From positions 1-50,812 of the IMG/VR virus record IMGVR_UViG_3300035670_000305: a stretch of 50,812 nt of DNA; one strand, 5' to 3'. The translations under genes were made by a program, and so were the position numbers. The notes under the pieces were generated by a model that did no database searches, was not told the origin of the DNA, and was given only the letters and a program-made list of their open reading frames with translations. The stretch comes from a virus. Below are positions 9,974 to 33,223 of this stretch, piece after piece. Position 1 is the first letter of the stretch, and every line of letters starts with the position of its first letter.

Positions 9974-9999
9974 CAATAAACGGAATCTTTTTCCGCATT
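9954..9999. other. Candidate phage junction / attachment region next to integrase
   Basis: Between the last gene of copy A and the integrase stop lie an inverted repeat GATTCCG (9954-9960) / CGGAATC (9981-9987) and a direct repeat TTCCGCATT (9956-9964 and 9991-9999). Repeats beside an integrase gene are typical of arm or core sites. No core duplicate is seen elsewhere in the window. Confidence 0.3.
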
Positions 10000-11002
10000 A
10001 ATTCGCTTCCCATTTCCCCATCGCCCGCTTTGCCGACTTGCGCTGGTTATGCTTGCGCGAATAATGCTCAATCATCCGCAATGACTGGCCAGTGATGGCT
10101 TTGACTTCCTGTATTGAGCAGCCTGCCTCTAGCAGCGTTCCAACGGCGTTCTTGCGTAGCCCGTGGGGTTTATAGCCCTTTGTCCATTTCATGATCCGCA
10201 TCCGCAGCGCCTCGGCTGTTAGCGGCTTGCCATTGGCTTGGCATAGGATGGTGGTTAAGCCCTTTGGATATTCGGCAAGGATTGCTTCCAGCTTGCTATG
10301 GATTGGCAGCCAAAGTTCCGGCGTTCGCTTGTGGGGCGGAACGTATATTTCCCCATCCTTGATGTCTTGCCAGCGCATCCGCACGACGGCCCCAATCCGC
10401 TGGCCTGTGTAATAAAGCAAGGCGACGGGCAAACGCAGTTCAGTCTTTAGCGCCGCCTCAATCAAGGCTTCTGGCCAAGGTTCATGCTCAGCCGCTTCGT
10501 GGTCAATCCGCATGTCTTTTGTCGGATCAAAGTCAGGTGGCAGCTTGTCGTTTTCGCGGCCATATCGAAACAGCGTTCTAAGCACGGCAAGCTGCATCTT
10601 TTGTGCGCCATAGCCTTGTTGCTCTAACAGTTCGCGAATATCGGGGCGGGTGATCTTTGTGACTGGCCAGCTACCGCGCTGCAAGTCGGTAAATTCATCA
10701 AGCAGCTTGTTTAGATATATGACATAGGTGTCTTGCGTGGATTGTGACCGCTTCTTGAAACTGTCGCTAGTCTGATAAGCCTTCACCAGTTCGGCAACGG
10801 TGTAAATTCGTTCGCGATTGTTGCGCTTGGTCTTGATTGCCAGATAGGCCGCAAACTTCGTTCCAAATTCCGGCGAACGCGGATCGGGCAAAGGGCGCAG
10901 CAATTGCTTGCCTTTGTGAAACTCGCCTGTCTTGAAATAAGCGTAACGCTTACCCTTGGCAGTTACGAATTTTATATGCTCTGCAAACGGCCCTTTTGCC
11001 AT
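9998..11002 (-). CDS. int: Tyrosine-recombinase integrase
   Basis: A 334-residue site-specific recombinase that integrates and excises the phage. The N-terminal half has a SAM-like core-binding domain (TVAELVKAYQ to about 160). The catalytic residues visible are R202 (TGQRIGAVVRM), K225, H280 and R283 (HGLRK) and the nucleophile Y314 (IEHYSR). The usual second His/Trp is Gln (ITGQS), a known variant. It overlaps the upstream excisionase-like gene by 31 nt and is the last gene of the leftward early operon. Its 3' end faces copy A, so the attachment site should be near 9930-9998. Confidence 0.93.
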   Translation of the reverse strand: MAKGPFAEHIKFVTAKGKRYAYFKTGEFHKGKQLLRPLPDPRSPEFGTKFAAYLAIKTKRNNRERIYTVAELVKAYQTSDSFKKRSQSTQDTYVIYLNKLLDEFTDLQRGSWPVTKITRPDIRELLEQQGYGAQKMQLAVLRTLFRYGRENDKLPPDFDPTKDMRIDHEAAEHEPWPEALIEAALKTELRLPVALLYYTGQRIGAVVRMRWQDIKDGEIYVPPHKRTPELWLPIHSKLEAILAEYPKGLTTILCQANGKPLTAEALRMRIMKWTKGYKPHGLRKNAVGTLLEAGCSIQEVKAITGQSLRMIEHYSRKHNQRKSAKRAMGKWEAN

Positions 11003-21765: not shown

Positions 21766-21896
21766 TGGCAGACCTTGAAGGCCAACTTGGCGAATTGCGC
21801 ATGACAATTGAGATTGTCCGCAAGGAAACTGGCAAAACCGAAACTGTGGAATTGATCGGCACGCCTGTTGCTGAAGAACAAGAGGATTCGGACTAA
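21765..21896 (+). CDS. 43-residue acidic protein
   Basis: TGATG coupling upstream and TAATG coupling downstream. LGELRMTIEIVRKETGKTET, then an acidic end (EEQEDSD). Function unknown; first soluble product of the late operon. Confidence 0.55.
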   Translation: MADLEGQLGELRMTIEIVRKETGKTETVELIGTPVAEEQEDSD

Positions 21897-22285
21897 TGGC
21901 TGTTACCCATAGCACTGCGGCGCGCAACGCAGCTACCGATGCTGTTACCGCACTTTTGGGCACTAGCCCGCGTCTGGTGTTTCGCACATCGGGCACGGTT
22001 GGTGCGCCTGGCACGGCTGTTGCTACCCTGACCATGTCGTCAACCGGCTTTGCTGCGGCATCGTCTGGAACCGCAACGGCAAACTCGATCACCAGCGACA
22101 CCAACGCAACGGGCAACGCTTCGGCGGTTGCAACGGCTACAATTCAGACCAGTGGCGGCACGGTTGTTATTCACTGCGCTGTTGCGGCATCGGCATCTGA
22201 CATCAACATGACCAACGGGCTTACCGTCAACGCTGGCGACACTGTAAGCTGTTCGTCGCTGACCTATACGGCCCTTAGCGCATAA
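21896..22285 (+). CDS. Small secreted-type beta-rich structural protein
   Basis: 129 residues, almost entirely S/T/A/G/V with two cysteines (VIHCAVAAS and TVSCSS). The composition suggests an all-beta decoration or minor structural protein. No family recognised. It sits directly before the repeat protein. Confidence 0.55.
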   Translation: MAVTHSTAARNAATDAVTALLGTSPRLVFRTSGTVGAPGTAVATLTMSSTGFAAASSGTATANSITSDTNATGNASAVATATIQTSGGTVVIHCAVAASASDINMTNGLTVNAGDTVSCSSLTYTALSA

Positions 22286-22296
22286 GGCTTTAAGAC

Positions 22297-23739
22297 ATGC
22301 CTATCACCTTTGTTGGTAGTCATGTCGGCACGCACGCTGCCACAAGCGCACAGACAATTGCGTTTTCAAACCTTCGCAACGAAAGCAACGTTCAACCAAC
22401 GCTTCAGCAGGGCGACCTTGTGCTGGTGGCGGTTGAGAACGCAACTAACAACGTCAACAGGACGGAAGCGCAGCTAACCCCAACAGGCTACACGGCGCTG
22501 CATACCGATGATTATCGGGATGACAGCAACGACAGTAACTTTCTTGTCAGCCGCAAGTTCATGGGTTCAACCCCTGACACTTCGGTTGATATTCCGGCAT
22601 CGGCTGCCACCACAGCGGGCGTTGCCTATGCAATTTATGTGTTTCGCGGTGTCAACCAAGTTGAGCCGATGGACGCAACGCCTGTTCCAACGGGCGCAAT
22701 CAATACGGGCGTTGCCAATGCGGCGGCGATTGTTCCAGTTACGCAAGGCGCGTGGATTGTTGTTTTTGGCGGTGCGGCGGTTGCTGCGGGTGCGGTGTTT
22801 ACCAATCCGGCGGGCATGTCCACCACGACAAACCACTTTCGCAGCGCAACGATTACAACAACCACCAACGACGCAAACATTGGCGGCGCAATATTCACTG
22901 GCTGGACTAGCGGCAGCTATGATCCGGCAGCATTTGGCGGTTCAACGTCAACTAATACAGGTTCATGGTCTGCGGTAACGCTGGCGCTAAGGCCGGTAGT
23001 TGACCACACAACAACAGGCGCGCTGCCTGGCGTAAGTTCATCCATTGCGGGATCGGCAAATCGCACAAGCCCTGTTGTCAGCCATTCGACGGATGGCGCA
23101 CTAACGGGCCAAGGTTCAACGGTTGTCGGGTCAGCAACAAGATTCAGAGCATTTGCAACCAGCGGGGTTCTGACTGGCCAAGGCCCGACGCTTTCGGGTT
23201 CGGCAGCACGGTTCAGGGCTTTTGCCACATCGGGCGCACTAACGGGGCAGGGTTCAACTGTTGCGGGCAGTGCCGACAGATCGGCATCGACGGTAACGCA
23301 CGCAACAACGGGCAGCCTTACTGGGCAAGGTTCAAGCGTTGCGGGTTCTGCGGCAAGGGAACGCATACACGCTTCAACCGGCGTTCTGACAGCCCAAGGC
23401 GCACAGATAACGGGGATTAGCCTTCGTTACCGCCTATTTGACACATCGGGCGCGCTGGAAGGCCAAGGATCGACGGTTGAGGGTTCGGCCAGCCTAACGC
23501 GCTTGCCAGTGTCGCACGGCACAACTGGCGTGCTTGCTGGACAGGGTTCGTTAATTACTGGCGCTACTTCAAAAGTAGGGTATTCAATAGTTATTCCGCC
23601 TGAAGGCACATGGAGCGCACAAACCCCTGAACCTTCATCATGGGATGCACAAACACCAACAACTGAAAACTGGACAACCGAAACACCGGCAAGCGGCACA
23701 TGGACACCCATGACGCCGCCATCTGGTTCTTGGACCTAA
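22297..23739 (+). CDS. Repeat-rich structural protein with C-terminal W-repeats
   Basis: 480 residues. Residues 1-230 form a beta-rich domain (YVFRGVNQVEPMDATPV). From about residue 238 come eight imperfect repeats of about 23-25 residues built around TSGALTGQGSTVAGSA. The last 45 residues carry Trp about every 10 residues within W-x3-TP-type units (TWSAQTPEPSSWDAQTP). Such composition suits a fibrous or surface-exposed virion decoration. It is upstream of the terminase genes, an unusual place for a fibre. No family recognised. Confidence 0.6.
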   Translation: MPITFVGSHVGTHAATSAQTIAFSNLRNESNVQPTLQQGDLVLVAVENATNNVNRTEAQLTPTGYTALHTDDYRDDSNDSNFLVSRKFMGSTPDTSVDIPASAATTAGVAYAIYVFRGVNQVEPMDATPVPTGAINTGVANAAAIVPVTQGAWIVVFGGAAVAAGAVFTNPAGMSTTTNHFRSATITTTTNDANIGGAIFTGWTSGSYDPAAFGGSTSTNTGSWSAVTLALRPVVDHTTTGALPGVSSSIAGSANRTSPVVSHSTDGALTGQGSTVVGSATRFRAFATSGVLTGQGPTLSGSAARFRAFATSGALTGQGSTVAGSADRSASTVTHATTGSLTGQGSSVAGSAARERIHASTGVLTAQGAQITGISLRYRLFDTSGALEGQGSTVEGSASLTRLPVSHGTTGVLAGQGSLITGATSKVGYSIVIPPEGTWSAQTPEPSSWDAQTPTTENWTTETPASGTWTPMTPPSGSWT

Positions 23740-23777: not shown

Positions 23778-24065
23778 ATGAGTGACGAGCCTAAAATAGG
23801 CCCGAATAGGGGTAACGCAGGCAAGGGGCGTCCTAAAGGAAGCCTCAACAAGTCCACGCAGATTGCTAAGGATGCAATAGCGCAGGCTGCCGAGGAATTG
23901 GGTGGTTCGCAGCGCCTTGTGGATTGGGCAAAGGAAGACCCAAAGAACGAACATTCGTTCTGGACTAACATTTATCCGAAGCTGCTGCCGCTTCAGGTCA
24001 ATGCAAGCCATGACGGCACTGTAATTGCCCAAGTGGTGTTTCGGGGCTTGAATGAGAACGGTTGA
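23778..24065 (+). CDS. Putative small terminase subunit
   Basis: 95 residues from MSDEPKIG (23778). PNRGNAGKGRPKGSLNKSTQ is a basic segment found in many small packaging proteins that precede a large terminase, and FWTNIYPKLLPLQV follows. It overlaps the large-subunit gene by 14 nt. Role in recognising the packaging site is inferred from position and motif. Confidence 0.7.
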   Translation: MSDEPKIGPNRGNAGKGRPKGSLNKSTQIAKDAIAQAAEELGGSQRLVDWAKEDPKNEHSFWTNIYPKLLPLQVNASHDGTVIAQVVFRGLNENG

Positions 24066-25320
24066 ATTAGTCTCGCCTTACGAGGTTCGAGAACAATTCC
24101 TGCCGCTTCACAAGCGTCAAACCCGTTGGGCCATTGCTGTTGCGCATCGCCGTGCGGGTAAAACGGTTGCCGACATCAATGAACTGATAATGGGTGCAAC
24201 AAAGTGCAAACTGCCTAACCCGCGCTTTGCCTATGTCGCACCACAGTTGAATCAGGCCAAAGACATTGCTTGGACTTACCTGAAGGAATACACGGCTTTT
24301 CTCAGCCCAAAGATAAACGAAAGCGAATTGTGGGTTGAACTGCCGGGCGGTGCACGCATCCGCATTTACGGCGCAGATAATCCCGATCGGTTGCGTGGTA
24401 TCTATCTGGACGGGGTAGTGCTTGATGAGTTTGGGGATATGGACCCGACCATCTGGACACAGGTTTTGCGCCCGGCGTTGTCTGACCGCAAAGGCTGGGC
24501 AATCTTTATTGGAACGCCAAAAGGCAAGAACACCTTTTACAAGCTATGGGTTGAAGCCGAAGGGGATGAAGACTGGACGCGCATAATGTTGCGTGCGTCC
24601 GAGACTGGCTTGCTTGATGCAAAAGAATTGGCCGACGCTCGCAAGATGATGTCGGACGATGAATATGCTCAGGAATATGAATGTTCGTTCGATGCTGCCG
24701 TTCGCGGGGCATATTATGCCAAGGAGCTTAACGAGGCCGAGGCAAGCGAACCAAAGCGGATCACATCTGTTCCGCATGATCCAAGGCTATTGACGCACAC
24801 CGCATGGGATTTGGGTGTTGCGGATAGCACTGTGGTTTGGTTTATCCAGACTGTAGGCCGCGAAACACGCTTCATTGACTGTCTGAAGGGTGAAGGCGTC
24901 GGCTTGGATTGGTATGTTGCCCAGCTTCAACAACGGGGCTGGTTATACGGCAATCACTATTTGCCGCACGATGTCGAGGTTCGGGAACTAGGGACGGGCA
25001 AGAGCCGCAAGGAAGTTCTTGAGGGGCTAGGCCTCAACAATATCAGGGTTGTTCCTAATATCCCGATTGCTGACGGCATACAGGCTTTGCGCATGTTGTT
25101 GCCGACTTGCTGGTTTGATGCCGGCAAGTGCAAGGAGGGTGTGGAGGCCCTTCGCATGTATCGCCGTGAATGGGATGACAAACGGCAGGAATTTAGAACG
25201 CATCCGCTGCATGACTGGACAAGCCATTATGCGGACGCAGCAAGGTATTTCGCAGTAGGCCATCAGGAGGTAAGCGCATCGCGACCGATCATCACGGGCC
25301 TTCGCAGGGGCATCGTATGA
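24052..25320 (+). CDS. terL: Terminase large subunit
   Basis: A 422-residue ATPase/nuclease that pumps and cuts phage DNA. Walker A is AHRRAGKT (31-38) and Walker B with the catalytic Glu is VVLDE (122-126). The coupling motif IGTPKGKN follows at about residue 155. The nuclease part starts AWDLGVADSTVVWF, carrying the first catalytic Asp. Length is at the short end of the family. The stop overlaps the start of the radical-SAM gene (ATGA). Confidence 0.95.
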   Translation: MRTVELVSPYEVREQFLPLHKRQTRWAIAVAHRRAGKTVADINELIMGATKCKLPNPRFAYVAPQLNQAKDIAWTYLKEYTAFLSPKINESELWVELPGGARIRIYGADNPDRLRGIYLDGVVLDEFGDMDPTIWTQVLRPALSDRKGWAIFIGTPKGKNTFYKLWVEAEGDEDWTRIMLRASETGLLDAKELADARKMMSDDEYAQEYECSFDAAVRGAYYAKELNEAEASEPKRITSVPHDPRLLTHTAWDLGVADSTVVWFIQTVGRETRFIDCLKGEGVGLDWYVAQLQQRGWLYGNHYLPHDVEVRELGTGKSRKEVLEGLGLNNIRVVPNIPIADGIQALRMLLPTCWFDAGKCKEGVEALRMYRREWDDKRQEFRTHPLHDWTSHYADAARYFAVGHQEVSASRPIITGLRRGIV

Positions 25321-26159
25321 GTTTACGCGACACTTACCTAGACTGGCCGCATGAGATCAGTTTGGAGACGTTTGCCAAGTGCAACGCGTCTTGCACATTC
25401 TGTCCATACACAACACTGGAACGCATCGGCACAAAGATGCCGGACGAACTGATAGACAAGATTATCGATGAACTGAAAGACCATCCGTGGCCGTTCATGT
25501 TCTCGCCGTTTAAGGTCAATGAGCCGTTTCTGGACAAGCGGCTTATCGCGATATGCGAAAAGGTAAATCGCGAACTGCCCCGCGCTCATTTGCGGATATT
25601 CTCCAACGGTTCGGCATTGACTGAAAAGCATATTGACGGGGTGAACGGGTTAGAGCGAGTAGTTCATATGTGGATCAGCCTGAATGACCACAGGCCCGAT
25701 GAATATAAACAACTGATGGGATTGGACTTCGAACGGACATGCAAGAATCTGGACTTGCTACATGAGAAGGTCGCGGCGGGAACTTTCCGCTGGGATGTTG
25801 TCGTATCGCGTGTTCGGGAAGCGTTCATACCGTCCGAAACAGACAACGCCTTTGCCGCCTACGTTAACCGACGCTGGCCCTTGTTTAAAGTCCACCTTAT
25901 CAAGCGAGATGGATGGATAGGCTACACCGAGCCGAATGACGCTGTAGTGCCTGACGCGCCTTGCGGGCGTTGGTTTGAATTGTCGATTTGCGCTGATGGC
26001 AAGGTTAGCTTGTGCTGCATGGACGGCACGGGTGAACATGCGATTGGCGATATTAACAACGGGGTATTTGAGACTTACAACGCGCCACACTGGCGGGAGC
26101 GTAGGCTTAAGATGCTATCACGGCATCAAGTGTCCCCGTGCAATGGGTGCACATACTGA
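25317..26159 (+). CDS. Radical-SAM enzyme with SPASM-like C-terminus
   Basis: 280 residues. KCNASCTFCPY holds the CxxxCxxC cluster (C22, C26, C29) that binds the 4Fe-4S radical-SAM centre. FSNGSAL and WISLNDH fit the following beta strands. The C-terminus (PCGRWFELSICADGKVSLCCMDG, then IGDI and SPCNGCTY) is the cysteine pattern of a SPASM/twitch auxiliary cluster, typical of peptide- or sugar-modifying enzymes. It is translationally coupled to terL and lies before a methyltransferase and the portal. Substrate unknown. Confidence 0.88.
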   Translation: MSLRDTYLDWPHEISLETFAKCNASCTFCPYTTLERIGTKMPDELIDKIIDELKDHPWPFMFSPFKVNEPFLDKRLIAICEKVNRELPRAHLRIFSNGSALTEKHIDGVNGLERVVHMWISLNDHRPDEYKQLMGLDFERTCKNLDLLHEKVAAGTFRWDVVVSRVREAFIPSETDNAFAAYVNRRWPLFKVHLIKRDGWIGYTEPNDAVVPDAPCGRWFELSICADGKVSLCCMDGTGEHAIGDINNGVFETYNAPHWRERRLKMLSRHQVSPCNGCTY

Positions 26160-26332
26160 TGCGAAAAGATTATTCAAAGATGAGCGACGCCGAATTGTGG
26201 GCGGAAATGGATAAAGAGCAGGCAGAGACATCTGCGCGTGACAAGCGTTTGCGTCGGTCTGGCGCGCATGAAATGGCGACTGCCCACGCGGAGTTTTTTC
26301 AGCGCGAAGTGTTTAGAGCGTTCAATGCGTGA
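26159..26332 (+). CDS. 57-residue protein in packaging module
   Basis: TGATG coupling with the radical-SAM gene. MRKDYSKMSDAELWAEMDKE, then a helical basic/acidic body ending EVFRAFNA. Could be a partner of the radical-SAM protein; no family recognised. Confidence 0.55.
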   Translation: MRKDYSKMSDAELWAEMDKEQAETSARDKRLRRSGAHEMATAHAEFFQREVFRAFNA

Positions 26333-26537
26333 ACTGTTTATTGGCATGGAAGCTGCTGTTGTTGAAGACGGGCCGATCGTGATTGACTGGTTGCACAACA
26401 CAGTAACAAATCTGACGCCGCTAGAAAAAGCAGTGACGCCGCCAAAGTTATGGCAGCAAGCTTTAACTTATGCGGCACACAAAAAGCGTCGAGAACGCCA
26501 AATTGATTTTGCATGGAGTTACTTAGGCCATGCGTGA
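26325..26537 (+). CDS. 70-residue protein in packaging module
   Basis: ATG 26325 lies in the end of the previous gene. MRELFIGMEAAVVEDGPIVI, then LTPLEKAVTPPKLWQQAL and a basic helix. No family recognised. Confidence 0.5.
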   Translation: MRELFIGMEAAVVEDGPIVIDWLHNTVTNLTPLEKAVTPPKLWQQALTYAAHKKRRERQIDFAWSYLGHA

Positions 26538-27051
26538 ACTTCTCATTGGCTGCGGAAACAGCCGCCGCAAGAAACTGACATTCGATGATAACCTGTCATG
26601 GGATGAACTGGTAACAATCGACCACGATCCGAACTGCGGGGCGGACATTGTTCATGACTTGGACGTTACCCCGTGGCCTGTGGATGGCGACCAGTTTGAC
26701 GGCGTTCATGCATACGAGGTTCTTGAGCATCTAGGCCAGCAGGGCGATTTTAAAGCGTTCTTCCGACACTTTGGCGAGATTTACCGGGTATTGAAGGATC
26801 AGGGCATTCTATACGCAACCGTCCCTGCATGGGATGATGTGTGGGCATGGGCTGACCCGTCGCATACCCGCGTGATTGCGCCTGAGACTTTGGTTTTCTT
26901 GGATCAGACTGAATATGTCAAACAGGTTGGCGTGACGCCAATGACTGACTTCCGCTGGCTGTGGAAGGGCGACTTTGAGGCCATCGCCTGCGAACGCAAG
27001 AGCGGCCACTACTGGATTGCACTGAAGGCACATAAGCCCGCACGCGTATAA
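26530..27051 (+). CDS. Class I SAM-dependent methyltransferase
   Basis: 173 residues. LLIGCGNSRRKKL is a motif I SAM-binding loop, and VTIDHDPNCGADIVHDL supplies the acidic residue after strand 2. FDGVHAYEVLEHLG is the motif IV-like segment of Methyltransf_11-type enzymes. Substrate unknown; this group often methylates small molecules, lipids or sugars. It shares an operon with the radical-SAM gene. Confidence 0.8.
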   Translation: MRELLIGCGNSRRKKLTFDDNLSWDELVTIDHDPNCGADIVHDLDVTPWPVDGDQFDGVHAYEVLEHLGQQGDFKAFFRHFGEIYRVLKDQGILYATVPAWDDVWAWADPSHTRVIAPETLVFLDQTEYVKQVGVTPMTDFRWLWKGDFEAIACERKSGHYWIALKAHKPARV

Positions 27052-27063
27052 GGAAATCTTTAT

Positions 27064-29151
27064 ATGATTGAACAAGACGCGCTGACCGCTGTGGATTCAG
27101 CGGCGGGCAACGCTATGGAAGAAGGCGAACTTGCCGCGCTGTGCCAGCAATTTGAAGCGCAATCCGTTGGTGAGGAATGGGACGAGATTGCCAGCCAGCA
27201 GGAAAAGGCAATCAATTACTACTATCGCCGCCCGTTCGGTGATGAGGTAGCCGGACAAAGCCAAGTTGTTGACGGCACGGTTGGTATCGTAATTGATAAC
27301 GCAATGGCTGCGGTGTTGAAGCCGTTTGTCAGTGCCGAAGATACGGTTTCGTTTAGCCCGCGTGGGCCGGAAGATGTTGAGCAGGCCGAGCAGGCAACGG
27401 AATATGTCAACTACGTCATTAACTGTGACAACCCCGGCTTTCTGATCTTTCATAACTGGTTCAAGGACGCGCTGCTTACCAAGATTGGCGTTATCAAGGT
27501 ATGGTGGGAGGACACGTCTTATCCCGAAGAGGCCCTGACCGACGCGCTAGGCGTATTGCAAGCCCGTGAAGCGCCGGATTACTATGGCGAACAGGATAAT
27601 GGTGACGGAACCTTTAGCGTTTCGCGCATTGTGGCTGACGGACGGGTTAAAATCGAGGTTATTCCGCCTGAAGAATATAAAATCAGCCCTTATGCCCGCA
27701 CCATCAAGGACGCGGTGTATCAATGCCATGCGCCGTCAAACGTAACCCGTTCTGACTTGCTGGAAATGGGCTTTGACCCTGACATAGTGGACACGCTGGC
27801 CGCTTATTCGGGTGAAGGCAAAGAGGCTGGCCGCGAGGAAGCGCGCTATCAAGATGAACGCTATGGGGCGGCAGACCGCCAGCTTGGCACGCCGCACCGT
27901 TCACAGGAAATCATCCCGCTAAAGGATGAATATATCCGCGTGGACTTTGATGGTGACGGGATTGCCGAACTGCGCCGCGTAATGCGGGTTGGCGATACGA
28001 TCCTGTTGAATGAGGAGGTCGAAGAACCGCCTTTTGCCGTTCTTTGCCCCGTTCCTATGCCGCACAAGGTTATCGGCCTGTCGTTGGCTGACCAGGTAGT
28101 TGACTTGCAGCGCATTGCGTCGGTGTTGTGGCGGCAGATGTTAGATAACTTGTATAAGGCCAACAATCCGCGCCCGCACATCCCGATGGGGGCCGAGCGT
28201 GCTGATGGTTCAACCGCTGACAGCCTGATGGACAACGCCCCTGGCGCAGCGGTGCTAGAGGGTTCGGTTCCGATCCGTTACGAATCCGTCCCGTTCGTGG
28301 CTGACAAGTCATTTATGATGATGGAACTGTTGCAACAGCAGCAGGAAGAACGGTCAGGAATTAGCCGTGCAGGGCAGGGGCTAGACACCAACGCCTTGAA
28401 GAAGGCTGGCCAGATGACGGCAACAGAAGTTGCGCAGATTATGTCCGGCAAGAATGCCCGCGCTGAAATGATTGCGCGCATCTTTGCTGAAACGGGCGTT
28501 AGCGACCTGTTCAAACTGGTGTTGAAGCTACTGGTTCGCCACCAACCCAAGGCACGCATGATCCGTTTGCGCAACCAATGGGTTGAGATGAACCCGCGCA
28601 TGTGGAATCCCGAAATGGATTTGACCATTAACGTGGGCCTAGGAATGGGTGAGCGTTCCGAACAAATCATGCAGGCCGATGCCATCTTGCAGACGATGGC
28701 TGAACTGGCGCAATCGCCTTACGCATCGCTGGTTAGCGCCGAAAACGTCTATAACGCCGTCAAGCGCAAATACCACGCTGCGGGCATCAAGTCGGTTGAT
28801 GAATATATCAGCGAACCGCAAGAAGCCCCTGAGCAGGAACAGCCTAGCCCTGAGCAGATGAAGGTTGAAGGTGAACTTCAGATGCAGGCTGCCAAGTTGC
28901 AAGGTGAACAGCAGATGCAAGCGGCTAAACTGGATGCGGCCCGCGAAGAAATGCTGATGAAGCAGCAACTGGCCCGCGAACAGGCTGAATTTGAAGCGCA
29001 ACTGGCCCGTGAAAAGGCCGCGCTTGAGATTGAACTGGCCCGCGAGAAAATGGCGATGGAGGCCGAACTTGCCCGCGAACGTGCGGCACTTGACGCCACG
29101 GCTAAAGTTGAAATCAGCAAGAACCGTCCAGGCGGGGATTTAGCTGAATGA
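27064..29151 (+). CDS. Portal protein (P22-like)
   Basis: 695 residues. An N-terminal INYYYRRPFGDE and VVDGTVGIVIDNAMAAVLKP, a wing region (VDLQRIASVLWRQMLDNLYKAN) and a stem-like MNPRMWN segment match portal proteins of short-tailed phages. The C-terminal 100 residues are a long coiled coil built of LARE(K/R) repeats, comparable to the barrel of P22 portal. The dodecamer would form the DNA entry channel and bind terminase. Confidence 0.9.
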   Translation: MIEQDALTAVDSAAGNAMEEGELAALCQQFEAQSVGEEWDEIASQQEKAINYYYRRPFGDEVAGQSQVVDGTVGIVIDNAMAAVLKPFVSAEDTVSFSPRGPEDVEQAEQATEYVNYVINCDNPGFLIFHNWFKDALLTKIGVIKVWWEDTSYPEEALTDALGVLQAREAPDYYGEQDNGDGTFSVSRIVADGRVKIEVIPPEEYKISPYARTIKDAVYQCHAPSNVTRSDLLEMGFDPDIVDTLAAYSGEGKEAGREEARYQDERYGAADRQLGTPHRSQEIIPLKDEYIRVDFDGDGIAELRRVMRVGDTILLNEEVEEPPFAVLCPVPMPHKVIGLSLADQVVDLQRIASVLWRQMLDNLYKANNPRPHIPMGAERADGSTADSLMDNAPGAAVLEGSVPIRYESVPFVADKSFMMMELLQQQQEERSGISRAGQGLDTNALKKAGQMTATEVAQIMSGKNARAEMIARIFAETGVSDLFKLVLKLLVRHQPKARMIRLRNQWVEMNPRMWNPEMDLTINVGLGMGERSEQIMQADAILQTMAELAQSPYASLVSAENVYNAVKRKYHAAGIKSVDEYISEPQEAPEQEQPSPEQMKVEGELQMQAAKLQGEQQMQAAKLDAAREEMLMKQQLAREQAEFEAQLAREKAALEIELAREKMAMEAELARERAALDATAKVEISKNRPGGDLAE

Positions 29152-30457: not shown

Positions 30458-31408
30458 ATGGTTAAAGTTACTTCCGCAATGGCCACGTATGACGTGACCA
30501 CCAACCGCGAAGACCTCGCAGATCAGGTTTATCGCATCAACCCGTCTGACACCCCGTTCATGACCGCTGTGCCCCGCGTAAAGGCAACTGCGGTTCTGCA
30601 CGAATGGTCAACTCAGGCGCTTTCGAGCATCAACACGACCAACGCACGCCTTGAAGGTGATGCGCTGACCCGTGCATCCTCGACTGCACCTGCACGCCGT
30701 CAGAACCACTGCCAGATTTCAAGCCGCGATGCGACCGTTACCGGCACGCAGCGTGCAACCAATCCGGCAGGCATCGATGACATGATGGCTTACCAGATGT
30801 CGCTCAAGAGCCTTGAGCTTCGCCGCGACATGGAATCCATCCTGTTGGGTAACACCGGCCAGAACGCTGGTAGCACCACCACGGCACGCACCCTGCGTTC
30901 GTTCAACGCATGGCTGTCGGGCAATGGTTCGCGTGGCACGGGCGGTGCAGACTCGACTGCGGCAACCGCAGCAGCAACCGATGCGACCACTGGTTCGATC
31001 CGCACCTTTACCGAAGATATGCTGAAGGACGCTGTTCTTGACGCATTCACCGATGGCGGTGAACCGAACCTCGTTCTGGTTGGCCCGTTCAACAAGCAGA
31101 AGTTCTCGACCTTCACCGGTCGTTCAACTTCGCAGGTTGTCGTGCGTCAGGACGTTGTAGACGGCGCTGCCGAACTTTACCGTTCGGACTTCGGCGTGCT
31201 GAAGGTTGTTCCCAACCGTTCGCAGCGTGACCGCGATGCGTTCATTGTGGACACCACCAAGGTTGCGGTTGCTGGCCTGCGTATGTTTGAACCGCAGGAA
31301 CTGGGCCGCGTTGGTGACGCAATCACGAGGGATATAATCTCCGAATATACGCTCGAGATGAGACACCCTGATGCTCACGCAGGCGTTTTCGACCTTACGA
31401 CCTCGTAA
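30458..31408 (+). CDS. Major capsid protein (SU10/DUF5309 type)
   Basis: 316 residues. YDVTTNREDLADQVYRINPSDTPFM and EWSTQALSS, then RRDMESILLGNTGQ and LVGPFNKQKFSTF, match the HK97-fold capsid family of phage SU10. Codon use is more uniform (C/G-ending) than in neighbours, as expected for a highly expressed gene. A strong terminator follows 16 nt after the stop. Confidence 0.88.
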   Translation: MVKVTSAMATYDVTTNREDLADQVYRINPSDTPFMTAVPRVKATAVLHEWSTQALSSINTTNARLEGDALTRASSTAPARRQNHCQISSRDATVTGTQRATNPAGIDDMMAYQMSLKSLELRRDMESILLGNTGQNAGSTTTARTLRSFNAWLSGNGSRGTGGADSTAATAAATDATTGSIRTFTEDMLKDAVLDAFTDGGEPNLVLVGPFNKQKFSTFTGRSTSQVVVRQDVVDGAAELYRSDFGVLKVVPNRSQRDRDAFIVDTTKVAVAGLRMFEPQELGRVGDAITRDIISEYTLEMRHPDAHAGVFDLTTS

Positions 31409-31464: not shown

Positions 31465-31761
31465 ATGTCCAAAAAAGCACTTCTTGAACTGATTGGCAAC
31501 GAACGCCGAGCAGTCATCTACCATGAGGAAGACGGCAAAACGCGCATTGAGCACCGTCAAGACCTCGATCCGGTTATTAAGGCCGCCAAAATCCTGTCCG
31601 AACGGAAGCCGAGCAAGGATTTTACAAGGGTTGCACTCATTCCCAAGTCCACGCTGGACAAGGCCCTTATTGAGGGCTGGTTCCACGATGAGGACGCTTG
31701 GCGAAAATGGGCAAACGACCCTGCAAATGAAGTCTTCCGCACAACGAAAGGCACTATTTGA
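31465..31761 (+). CDS. Small protein downstream of capsid gene
   Basis: 98 residues from MSKKALLELIG (31465, GGGGG 4 nt upstream). RVALIPKSTLDKALIEGWFHDEDAW is the best-ordered part. No family recognised. TGATG coupling to the glycosyltransferase gene. Confidence 0.55.
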   Translation: MSKKALLELIGNERRAVIYHEEDGKTRIEHRQDLDPVIKAAKILSERKPSKDFTRVALIPKSTLDKALIEGWFHDEDAWRKWANDPANEVFRTTKGTI

Positions 31762-32594
31762 TGCCATCCCTTAAAATTGCCGTCTGTATCCCCACTTACG
31801 GCGACCCTGAGGTTTTGTTCATGCAAAGCCTCTTGATGATGTCCAAGCACTTTTACGAAGCCAAGCTGACCAATTCGGACGGTGAAGACTACGACAAAGA
31901 ATTGGAATATTTCATCGTATCAAGTTCGATGTTGACCGAAAGTCGCCATCGCCTTGTTGCCGAAGCCCTGAATTGGGGCGCTGACTACATGCTATGGTGC
32001 GATGCCGACCATTCATTTCCCGCCGATGCGCTTTGCCGATTGTGGGCAAGGAATGTCCAGGTAGTCGGCGCGAACTATGCACGGCGCTGCAAACCAACGG
32101 CTCCAACGGCTGCAAAGATTGTCACAACCGATGACGGGCAGGATCATAAAAACCTAGTCTATACGACTATGGAAAAGGCACATGACAATGTCCTTGAGGA
32201 AGTCTCGCACCTTGGGTTCGGGCTGTGCCTTGTCCGCATGGACGTATTTGACCAGTTGCAATTGAAGGCAGAGGAAGAAGGCAAAGATACCTTCCTGCCG
32301 CTGTTCATGTTTACGCCTACGGACAATTACAAAGGCATGATTGGGGAAGATGTCTATTTCTTCCGCAAGCTACGGGACGCAGGCGTCAAGGTTTACTGCG
32401 ATCACGGCGTTAGCTGGCAAGTCGGCCACATTATGAAAACCCAAGTCACCAATGCTCATGCCGTAGTGCAAGAGGAAAAGTGGCTGGAACAGTCTGGCAA
32501 GCTGCGCGCCAAATACAACAAGCGGATTGAGGAACTAGAGGCTGGAAAAACGCCTGAGCCTTTGACCCGTGACGAAATCGAAGGGGTGGATTGA
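31761..32594 (+). CDS. Glycosyltransferase, GT-A type
   Basis: 277 residues. KIAVCIPTYGDPEVLFMQSL is the nucleotide-sugar-binding start, and YMLWCDADHSFP has the metal-binding D-x-D (81-83). GEDVYFFRKLRDAG is the family 2-like acceptor-side motif. There is no membrane segment. It is embedded between capsid and head-tail connector genes, so it could glycosylate the virion, or use host-type sugar donors to alter surface polysaccharide. Role unproven. Confidence 0.8.
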   Translation: MPSLKIAVCIPTYGDPEVLFMQSLLMMSKHFYEAKLTNSDGEDYDKELEYFIVSSSMLTESRHRLVAEALNWGADYMLWCDADHSFPADALCRLWARNVQVVGANYARRCKPTAPTAAKIVTTDDGQDHKNLVYTTMEKAHDNVLEEVSHLGFGLCLVRMDVFDQLQLKAEEEGKDTFLPLFMFTPTDNYKGMIGEDVYFFRKLRDAGVKVYCDHGVSWQVGHIMKTQVTNAHAVVQEEKWLEQSGKLRAKYNKRIEELEAGKTPEPLTRDEIEGVD

Positions 32595-33223
32595 TGTCGG
32601 AAGATCCGGGAACTTGGACAGAACTGAAGGCGTCTTTGGCCGAATGGCTAAACCGTTCTGACCTGACGGCCAAAATCCCGGAACTGATTGCGCTTGCCGA
32701 ACGCAAGTTTAACCGCATCATTGTCACGCCGGAACGCGAGGCCACGGTTACATCGACCGTTTCAAGCGAAACCTTGGCCTTGCCTTCTGACTTCTGGCAA
32801 TTGCGGTCAATCCATCTGACAACCGATCCACGCCAGCCATTGACGCAAGTTTCGCCTATGGTGCTGCGTTCGGAATATGCTGACCAAACGACTGGCGAGC
32901 CCCGCGTGTTTGCGATTGAGAACGGAGCCTTCATCTTTGGCCCTGCACCTGATGCAAGTTACACACTTAATATCACTTACATAAAGACCATTCCGCCATT
33001 GAACGCATCAACCGCGTCAAACTGGCTGCTGGAAAAACACCCCGATATTTACCTTTACGGCTCTTTGTTGGCTGCTGAAGCCTATTTGTGGAACGATGCA
33101 CGCCTGCCGGTATGGAAGGACGCGCTTGACGAGGCCATTGCCGAATTGGCTGACGCTGGCAACCGTTACCGCATGTCAGGCCCGATGCGGCTTCGCAGCC
33201 CTGTTGTTGGGTGGGGTATATGA
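32594..33223 (+). CDS. Head-tail adaptor protein
   Basis: 209 residues from ATG 32594 (TGATG coupling). WTELKASLAEWLNRSDL, then IPELIALAERKFNRII and LPSDFWQLRSIHL, are typical of the connector family that follows the capsid gene in short-tailed phages. The C-terminal half is helical (LLEKHPDIYLYGSLLAAEAY). Confidence 0.78.
   Translation: MSEDPGTWTELKASLAEWLNRSDLTAKIPELIALAERKFNRIIVTPEREATVTSTVSSETLALPSDFWQLRSIHLTTDPRQPLTQVSPMVLRSEYADQTTGEPRVFAIENGAFIFGPAPDASYTLNITYIKTIPPLNASTASNWLLEKHPDIYLYGSLLAAEAYLWNDARLPVWKDALDEAIAELADAGNRYRMSGPMRLRSPVVGWGI

What the first reader, a model, noticed from the sequence alone, without database searches (positions are those of the whole stretch)
25317..27051. 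Radical-SAM/SPASM enzyme plus methyltransferase between terminase and portal
The radical-SAM gene overlaps terL and is followed by two small unknown genes and a SAM methyltransferase, all coupled, then the portal. Modifying enzymes in the core packaging module are unusual, and the SPASM cysteines suggest peptide or sugar modification. The two small genes (26159, 26325) could be substrates or partners. With the glycosyltransferase after the capsid this could be a virion- or envelope-modifying set.
Basis: partly seen in the sequence, partly recalled or inferred. Interest (0 to 1): 0.7.

Follow-up and report, generated by a model that had tools for sequence, protein, structure and literature searches.

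The report
Phage sugar-tailoring enzymes in head module
Some uncultured phages carry, among their particle-building genes, a sugar-attaching enzyme together with a methyltransferase and a radical enzyme that probably refine that sugar, which suggests that they coat their own particles with an unusual modified sugar.

Summary
In detail: terL, radical-SAM gene (rSAM), two small ORFs, methyltransferase (MT) and portal are coupled in an SU10-like, probably temperate podovirus record. All eight rSAM Fe-S cysteines are invariant in 57 relatives. Three corrections. (1) The rSAM C-terminus is a five-cysteine Twitch, not a full SPASM; by sequence (E 6e-24) and predicted fold (Z 23.5) its nearest solved relative is BtrN, an aminocyclitol dehydrogenase. 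(2) The two small ORFs are absent from a 98%-identical contig and have no relatives found, so they are not required substrates. (3) The true partner is the glycosyltransferase (GT) after the capsid gene. In P22-type phages GT-MT-rSAM form one cassette between coat protein and head-tail connector; in SU10-type phages MT/rSAM lie between terL and portal, GT after the capsid. Across 78 head modules of both types presence is strictly nested (rSAM only with MT, MT only with GT). Two Clostridium relatives sit in a GT-MT-rSAM run near flagellin genes; six other bacterial ones lie near GT41-type genes. The GT model most resembles STIV A197 and protein galactosyltransferases. Most likely: glycosylation of a virion protein, with MT and rSAM tailoring the sugar. 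Substrate and chemistry are inferred.

The parts
25317..26159 (+). radical-SAM enzyme with C-terminal Twitch (truncated SPASM) domain, BtrN-like, 280 aa
   Evidence: Pfam PF04055 + PF13186; invariant C22 C26 C29 C216 C233 C234 C275 C278 in 57 of 57; AF2 pLDDT 95.6; BtrN nearest by sequence and fold
26530..27051 (+). class I SAM-dependent methyltransferase, 173 aa
   Evidence: PF08241; conserved LLIGCGN-type motif in 13 aligned sequences; within 2.5 kb of 67 of 80 viral rSAM genes
31758..32594 (+). GT-A glycosyltransferase between capsid gene and adaptor; third member of the set
   Evidence: phrog_34859 glycosyltransferase 2.9e-7 and phrog_1574; AF2 pLDDT 87.8; fold closest to STIV A197 (Z 18.3), LH3, Mnn9, ColGalT1; D82 and D84 invariant in 22 sequences
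26159..26332 (+). small ORF s1, 57 aa; variable insert, unlikely part of the system
   Evidence: absent from L002; no relatives
26325..26537 (+). small ORF s2, 70 aa; variable insert, unlikely part of the system
   Evidence: absent from L002; no relatives
26325..26345 (+). 21-nt direct repeat copy 1 (start of s2)
   Evidence: 86% identical to start of MT
26530..26550 (+). 21-nt direct repeat copy 2 (start of MT)
24052..25320 (+). terminase large subunit (context)
   Evidence: PF03237
27064..29151 (+). SU10-type portal (context)
   Evidence: PF23899 1e-177
30458..31408 (+). SU10-type major capsid protein (context; candidate acceptor)
   Evidence: PF17236 1.1e-82
32591..33223 (+). SU10-type adaptor (context)
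   Evidence: PF24175 4e-35

Best explanation
The rSAM and MT are the tailoring half of a three-enzyme glycan pathway of the phage head module; the GT at 31758-32594 is the first half. Proposed order: the soluble GT-A enzyme transfers a host-derived nucleotide sugar to a virion protein (acceptor unknown) during late gene expression; MT methylates the sugar; rSAM, using its SAM cluster and a BtrN-like auxiliary [4Fe-4S] cluster, oxidises a sugar C-OH, or does related radical chemistry on it. The small ORFs s1/s2 are an insert with no role in this. Shown: gene linkage, nested co-occurrence, conservation, domain architecture, predicted folds. Inferred: acceptor, sugar, order of steps, and the chemistry of MT and rSAM.
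For: Nested presence: SU10-type, 37 modules: none 22, GT 9, GT+MT 2, GT+MT+rSAM 4; P22-type, 41 modules: none 11, GT 1, GT+MT 19, GT+MT+rSAM 8, MT+rSAM with GT seen only by the older profile 2. Chance of such nesting with presence dealt at random: 0.002 and 0.0002 (SU10), 4e-9 and 0.018 (P22) (ignores kinship). In SU10-type phages MT and GT co-occur although not adjacent. Contiguous GT-MT-rSAM between P22 coat (PF11651) and gp4 connector (PF11650). Relatives: Clostridium L251 and L255 have a GT2/TPR-MT-rSAM run near flagellin genes; 6 more of 26 bacterial loci at 36-50% identity have a GT41-type gene nearby. rSAM closest to BtrN, E 6e-24 against 3e-10 for the next, VIA Z 23.5 against 19.9 for DesII, a sugar enzyme (recalled); all four C-terminal BtrN cysteines align. 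GT fold nearest STIV A197, LH3 and ColGalT1; STIV capsid protein is glycosylated (PMC10551542, passages).
Against: No acceptor identified; apart from GT itself only g29148 (p 0.0015) and MT tracked GT at p<0.05 in SU10 modules. Sequence grouping in this enzyme subfamily is a poor guide to function (stated in PMC6231123, passages), and SuiB, CteB and anSME, which act on peptides or proteins, score Z 18-20 against the same model. L190 carries GT and rSAM with no detectable MT. 13 of 80 phage rSAM loci lack MT within 2.5 kb, nine of them in the remote group (25-32% identity) and three cut by contig ends. 28 of 80 MT loci lack a recognised GT in the held DNA, many short, some with nearly 10 kb flanks. 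The P22 anchor came from a cassette-bearing phage. A shared GT-A fold does not show the acceptor.
Confidence: 0.55

Rival explanations
1. The set modifies host surface polysaccharide (O-antigen or capsule), for example to exclude competing phages, as proposed for glycosyltransferases of marine myophages.
For: Phage glycosyltransferases are often read this way (PMC7029224, passages); the phage has an integrase, so lysogenic conversion is conceivable; some rSAM relatives (L247, L248) also lie near GalE-like genes.
Against: The genes are embedded and co-directional in the head-assembly operon of two unrelated capsid types; no GtrA/GtrB-type membrane partner or sugar-nucleotide gene was seen among the window proteins scanned; the closest bacterial contexts include flagellin and GT41 protein glycosylation.
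Confidence: 0.2
2. rSAM (with MT) modifies a virion protein or peptide side chain directly (epimerisation, cross-link, thioether), independent of the GT.
For: Twitch/SPASM enzymes YydG/EpeE, SuiB, SkfB and CteB are near structural neighbours.
Against: BtrN is clearly first by sequence and fold; no conserved small precursor gene next to rSAM: s1/s2 have no relatives; rSAM never occurs without GT in the 78 complete modules (with two GTs seen by the profile).
Confidence: 0.15
3. DNA or RNA base modification, or a viperin-like nucleotide function.
For: Phages carry QueE-type rSAMs (one search lists some) and base-modifying glycosyltransferases (recalled); weak pVip hit (1e-4).
Against: Viperin matches are far below the curated cut-off (19.6 bits against 180); the C-terminal cysteines fit Twitch; no base-hypermodification gene recognised among the window proteins scanned.
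Confidence: 0.05
4. Unrelated accessory genes that happen to land in permissive gaps of the head operon.
For: 61 of 72 SU10-type terL-portal intervals hold neither MT nor rSAM, and other small ORFs occur there.
Against: Strict nesting in both lineages and joint presence in phages of two capsid types; identity matrices of the three proteins correlate at r 0.69-0.72 over 48 loci, though shared phage descent could give the same.
Confidence: 0.05

Closest known systems
BtrN (2-deoxy-scyllo-inosamine dehydrogenase, butirosin pathway)
   Same: Partial TIM barrel plus Twitch; CxxxCxxC and all four C-terminal cysteines align; best fold match, Z 23.5, 227 residues, rmsd 2.4
   Different: 18% identity; an extra invariant cysteine C234; phage context; substrate unknown
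Virion glycosylation of mycobacteriophages Che8 and relatives
   Same: Phage-encoded glycosyltransferases act on capsid or tail tube (cited in PMC10877033 and PMC11256854, passages)
   Different: Different phages; no rSAM partner mentioned in the passages read; GTs lie near the genome 3' end in Maravista
STIV A197 and the glycosylated STIV capsid
   Same: Minimal GT-A fold, top VIA match of the GT model (Z 18.3); virus capsid protein glycosylated
   Different: Archaeal virus; acceptor of A197 not proven; no MT or rSAM mentioned in the passages read
Flagellin-linked island of Clostridium ljungdahlii / C. luticellarii (L255, L251)
   Same: GT, MT, rSAM in the same order near flagellin genes; rSAM about 40% identical
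   Different: GT2 with TPR repeats and a longer MT protein; function of this island not tested
Phage radical-SAM genes in pelagimyophages and T4-like marine genomes
   Same: Phage radical-SAM genes in regions rich in glycosyltransferases (PMC7029224, passages); 12 in one genome (PMC5332604, passages)
   Different: Those are in host-recognition regions or scattered in large myophages, not in a podovirus head operon

Membership tests
Radical SAM superfamily | CxxxCxxC SAM-cluster motif in a partial TIM barrel | tested here: met
   C22 C26 C29 in 57 of 57 (the search pattern favoured these three); PF04055; AF2 model
SPASM domain (two auxiliary clusters) | Seven-cysteine motif CX9-15GX4C-gap-CX2CX5CX3C-gap-C (as given in PMC6231123) | tested here: not met
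   CX11GX4C and one CX2C present, protein ends two residues later; CX5CX3C...C part absent
Twitch subfamily | Truncated SPASM with ligands for one auxiliary cluster | tested here: met
   Four BtrN positions align, C216 C233 C275 C278; fold match over whole chain. Cluster itself not tested
BtrN-type dehydrogenase | Two-electron oxidation of a sugar/cyclitol alcohol | not testable with these tools
   Only sequence and fold similarity; substrate residues not compared
Class I SAM methyltransferase | Glycine-rich SAM motif and Methyltransf_11 profile | tested here: met
   PF08241 above cut-off, 26.1 against 21.2 bits
GT-A glycosyltransferase | GT-A fold and acidic metal/nucleotide-sugar motif | tested here: met
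   Fold matches, Z 16-18; D82 and D84 invariant in 22
Virion glycosylation system | Glycan covalently present on a virion protein | not testable with these tools
   Needs mass spectrometry
RiPP maturase with adjacent precursor | Conserved small precursor gene beside the rSAM | tested here: not met
   s1/s2 missing in L002 and without relatives
Prokaryotic viperin | Score above the viperin family cut-off | tested here: not met
   NF038283 19.6 against 180 bits; PADLOC pVip 1e-4
SU10-like phage head module | SU10 portal, capsid and adaptor families | tested here: met
   PF23899, PF17236, PF24175

The most novel reading that the evidence does not exclude
Phages of at least two capsid lineages build a virion glycan that is finished by a radical-SAM dehydrogenase, giving an oxidised (keto) and methylated sugar on the particle: radical chemistry used to decorate virus coats, acquired from bacterial protein-glycosylation loci and exchanged between phage types.
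Probability: 0.3. Interest if true: 0.75.

Novelty: new variant of a known kind. Interest (0 to 1): 0.55.

Why it matters
Phage virion glycosylation is known from few cases, described in the passages read as the work of glycosyltransferases. A three-enzyme, strictly nested set in the head operons of uncultured phages would show that particle glycans are elaborated step by step, and offers a testable substrate problem for a BtrN-like radical enzyme. The rSAM is nearly absent from deposited phage genomes: 1 of 50,697 records gave even a weak match, at 22% identity.

Tried and rejected
Small ORFs as RiPP-like substrates: rejected (absent from L002; no relatives). The s2 start is a 21-nt imperfect repeat of the MT start, which suggests that s2 entered by recombination at the MT start.

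Full SPASM: rejected in favour of Twitch. Viperin/defence: rejected.

Search for an acceptor gene that tracks GT in 37 SU10-type modules: only g29148 (73 aa, after portal) was enriched (10 of 15 GT-positive, 3 of 22 GT-negative by BLAST clustering), but profile hits place it in more GT-negative modules too; not pursued. Ser/Thr-rich proteins at 21896 and 22297 are possible acceptors by composition only.

MT against solved structures: nothing at E 0.01. Paper searches for the combination: radical SAM, glycosyltransferase, phage, virion glycosylation: 0 papers; 1 paper, judged unrelated from its listing; 2 papers; one checked by passages, its radical SAM is listed with QueC; 15 papers; two checked by passages. 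None of what I saw describes this cassette; subscription papers and preprints are mostly not held. A search for DesII with BtrN found nothing.

The tree is a quick one; two bacterial rows (L265, L282) fall inside the phage clade on a 6.38-long branch and I treat that as an artefact.

Counts were deduplicated only by an identical 400-nt stretch, so near relatives remain.

Full report
What is there. The window is a virus record of 50,812 bases. Its head module is SU10-like: portal PF23899 (1e-177), major capsid PF17236 (1.1e-82), adaptor PF24175 (4e-35); an integrase at 9998-11002 on the minus strand makes it probably temperate. Between terL (24052-25320) and portal (27064-29151) lie rSAM 25317-26159, s1 26159-26332, s2 26325-26537 and MT 26530-27051, with overlapping starts and stops.

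The small ORFs. Contig L002 is 98% identical at protein level in rSAM and MT but lacks s1 and s2: there the rSAM stop overlaps the MT start directly. The first 21 nt of s2 repeat the first 21 nt of MT at 86%. Neither has a relative in 364 fetched loci by phmmer at 1e-3 (the only hits are the window's own DNA); s2 has none in IMG/VR and s1 none among 50,697 phage records. They are a variable insert, not a conserved substrate.

The enzymes. In an alignment of 57 relatives (57 of the 58 I had chosen, the window's own included; L202 was left out because of stops) C22, C26, C29, C216, C233, C234, C275 and C278 are all invariant. The first three partly entered the search pattern; the five C-terminal ones did not. 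The pattern CX11GX4CC...CX2C at the very end is a truncated SPASM, a Twitch, by the motif given in PMC6231123 (passages read). A profile of the alignment finds BtrN first among all PDB sequences (E 6e-24; next YydG 3e-10) and aligns all four C-terminal cysteines of BtrN (that BtrN's auxiliary cluster has four cysteine ligands is from PMC9012708 and PMC6231123, passages). The AlphaFold2 model (pLDDT 95.6) matches BtrN best: Foldseek E 2e-12, VIA Z 23.5, 227 residues, rmsd 2.4; next DesII Z 19.9, then peptide-acting SuiB, ChlB and CteB at 19-20. BtrN oxidises an aminocyclitol alcohol (PMC9012708); that DesII acts on a nucleotide sugar is recalled. MT is a class I methyltransferase. The GT at 31758-32594 gives a GT-A model (pLDDT 87.8) closest to STIV A197 (Z 18.3), human LH3 (17-18), Mnn9 (16.3) and ColGalT1 (15.9). 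The STIV capsid protein is glycosylated and A197 possibly does it (PMC10551542, passages).

Neighbourhood survey. All loci below are from pattern-seeded searches of IMG/VR. SU10-type: from the capsid and terminase scans, 72 non-identical terL-portal intervals: 61 with neither gene, 6 MT, 4 rSAM-MT, 1 MT-rSAM. Of these, 37 reach capsid and adaptor: no member 22, GT 9, GT+MT 2, GT+MT+rSAM 4; Fisher GT against MT p 0.002. P22-type: 56 non-identical coat loci, 41 with a connector gene downstream: none 11, GT 1, GT+MT 19 (one with two GT), GT+MT+rSAM 8 (one with two MT), MT+rSAM 2; in those two contigs the earlier GT profile does find a GT (loci L185 and L179). So in 78 modules rSAM never occurs without MT, nor MT without GT. 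Chance values for the nesting are and ignore kinship. In P22-type phages the order is portal PF16510, scaffold, coat PF11651, GT, MT, rSAM, gp4 connector PF11650, head closure.

Exceptions. Of 80 viral rSAM loci, 67 have MT within 2.5 kb. Among the 60 at 43% identity or more, four lack it: L198, L204 and L205 are cut by the contig end within 20 nt of rSAM, while L190 truly has GT and rSAM but no MT. The remote group (25-32% identity) lacks MT in 9 of 20. Of 80 MT loci, 28 have no recognised GT in the held DNA; many are short, but several have nearly 10 kb of sequence on one or both sides. The nesting is therefore a statement about the two capsid types only. The P22 anchor was taken from a cassette-bearing phage, which inflates the cassette's frequency there.

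Origin. In a quick tree of 126 rSAMs the SU10-type sequences, with L004 (whose terL is 80% identical to the window's), form one clade (support 99) within a phage clade (support 100) that is otherwise P22-type or untyped, apart from two long-branch bacterial rows. This fits one entry into phages and later exchange between capsid types. The nearest bacterial relatives: of 27 genome loci at 36-55% identity (L230-L255, L264) one (L230) is itself a P22-type phage stretch; of the other 26, two Clostridium loci carry a GT2-TPR, MT, rSAM run near flagellin genes (L255 between two flagellins; L251 downstream of flagellin) and six carry a GT41-type (O-GlcNAc-transferase family) gene within the locus, two of them only on the other strand; the other 18 showed neither with the queries used, several being short.

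Mechanism. Best reading: the GT puts a sugar on a virion protein late in infection, MT methylates it and rSAM oxidises it or does related chemistry. The nested presence is what a stepwise pathway predicts: each later enzyme needs the product of the earlier. That GT and MT stay together in SU10-type genomes although 4-5 kb apart argues for function and not only linkage. Shown: architecture, conservation, nesting, contexts. Inferred: acceptor, sugar, order and reactions. Purifying selection (rSAM dN 0.012, dS 0.26 between window and L002) shows that the genes are maintained.

Known or new. Phage virion glycosylation is known (Freeman et al. 2023, not read; cited in PMC10877033 and PMC11256854), and phage radical-SAM genes are known. 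The combination as a nested head-module cassette was not found in the searches, which cover open-licence papers only. Novelty: new variant of a known kind.

Noticed in passing
window 21896-23739: Two adjacent Ser/Thr-rich proteins (33% and 27% S+T), the second with repeats visible by eye and no family hit, just upstream of terS; possible virion proteins.
   Followed up: partly
L021 10060-10686: The near-identical contig has a 209-aa HNH-endonuclease-like ORF (judged by eye) inserted between the capsid gene and g31414; the window lacks it.
   Followed up: no
window 9998-11002 (-): Integrase (phrog_1, 1e-29): the phage is probably temperate.
   Followed up: no
L255 8846-10096: In Clostridium ljungdahlii a cysteine-rich 417-aa protein follows the rSAM between two flagellin genes; it looks like a FliB-type flagellin lysine methylase (recalled; no Pfam hit at 0.001).
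   Followed up: partly
L190 5992-8586: A third phage type with a long GT (464 aa), a 93-aa ORF and rSAM but no methyltransferase.
   Followed up: partly
L210-L219, L227-L228: A second, remote phage rSAM group (25-32% identical), several with MT and GT, some in the order rSAM-MT-GT, near a different capsid family (phrog_9953 in L211).
   Followed up: partly
L241 5305-8849: In Terasakiella the rSAM, with an N-terminal extension, follows a porin-like gene (judged by eye).
   Followed up: no
L010 2289-3126: In L010 the MT lies upstream of terS instead of behind terL, so MT moves within the module.
   Followed up: no
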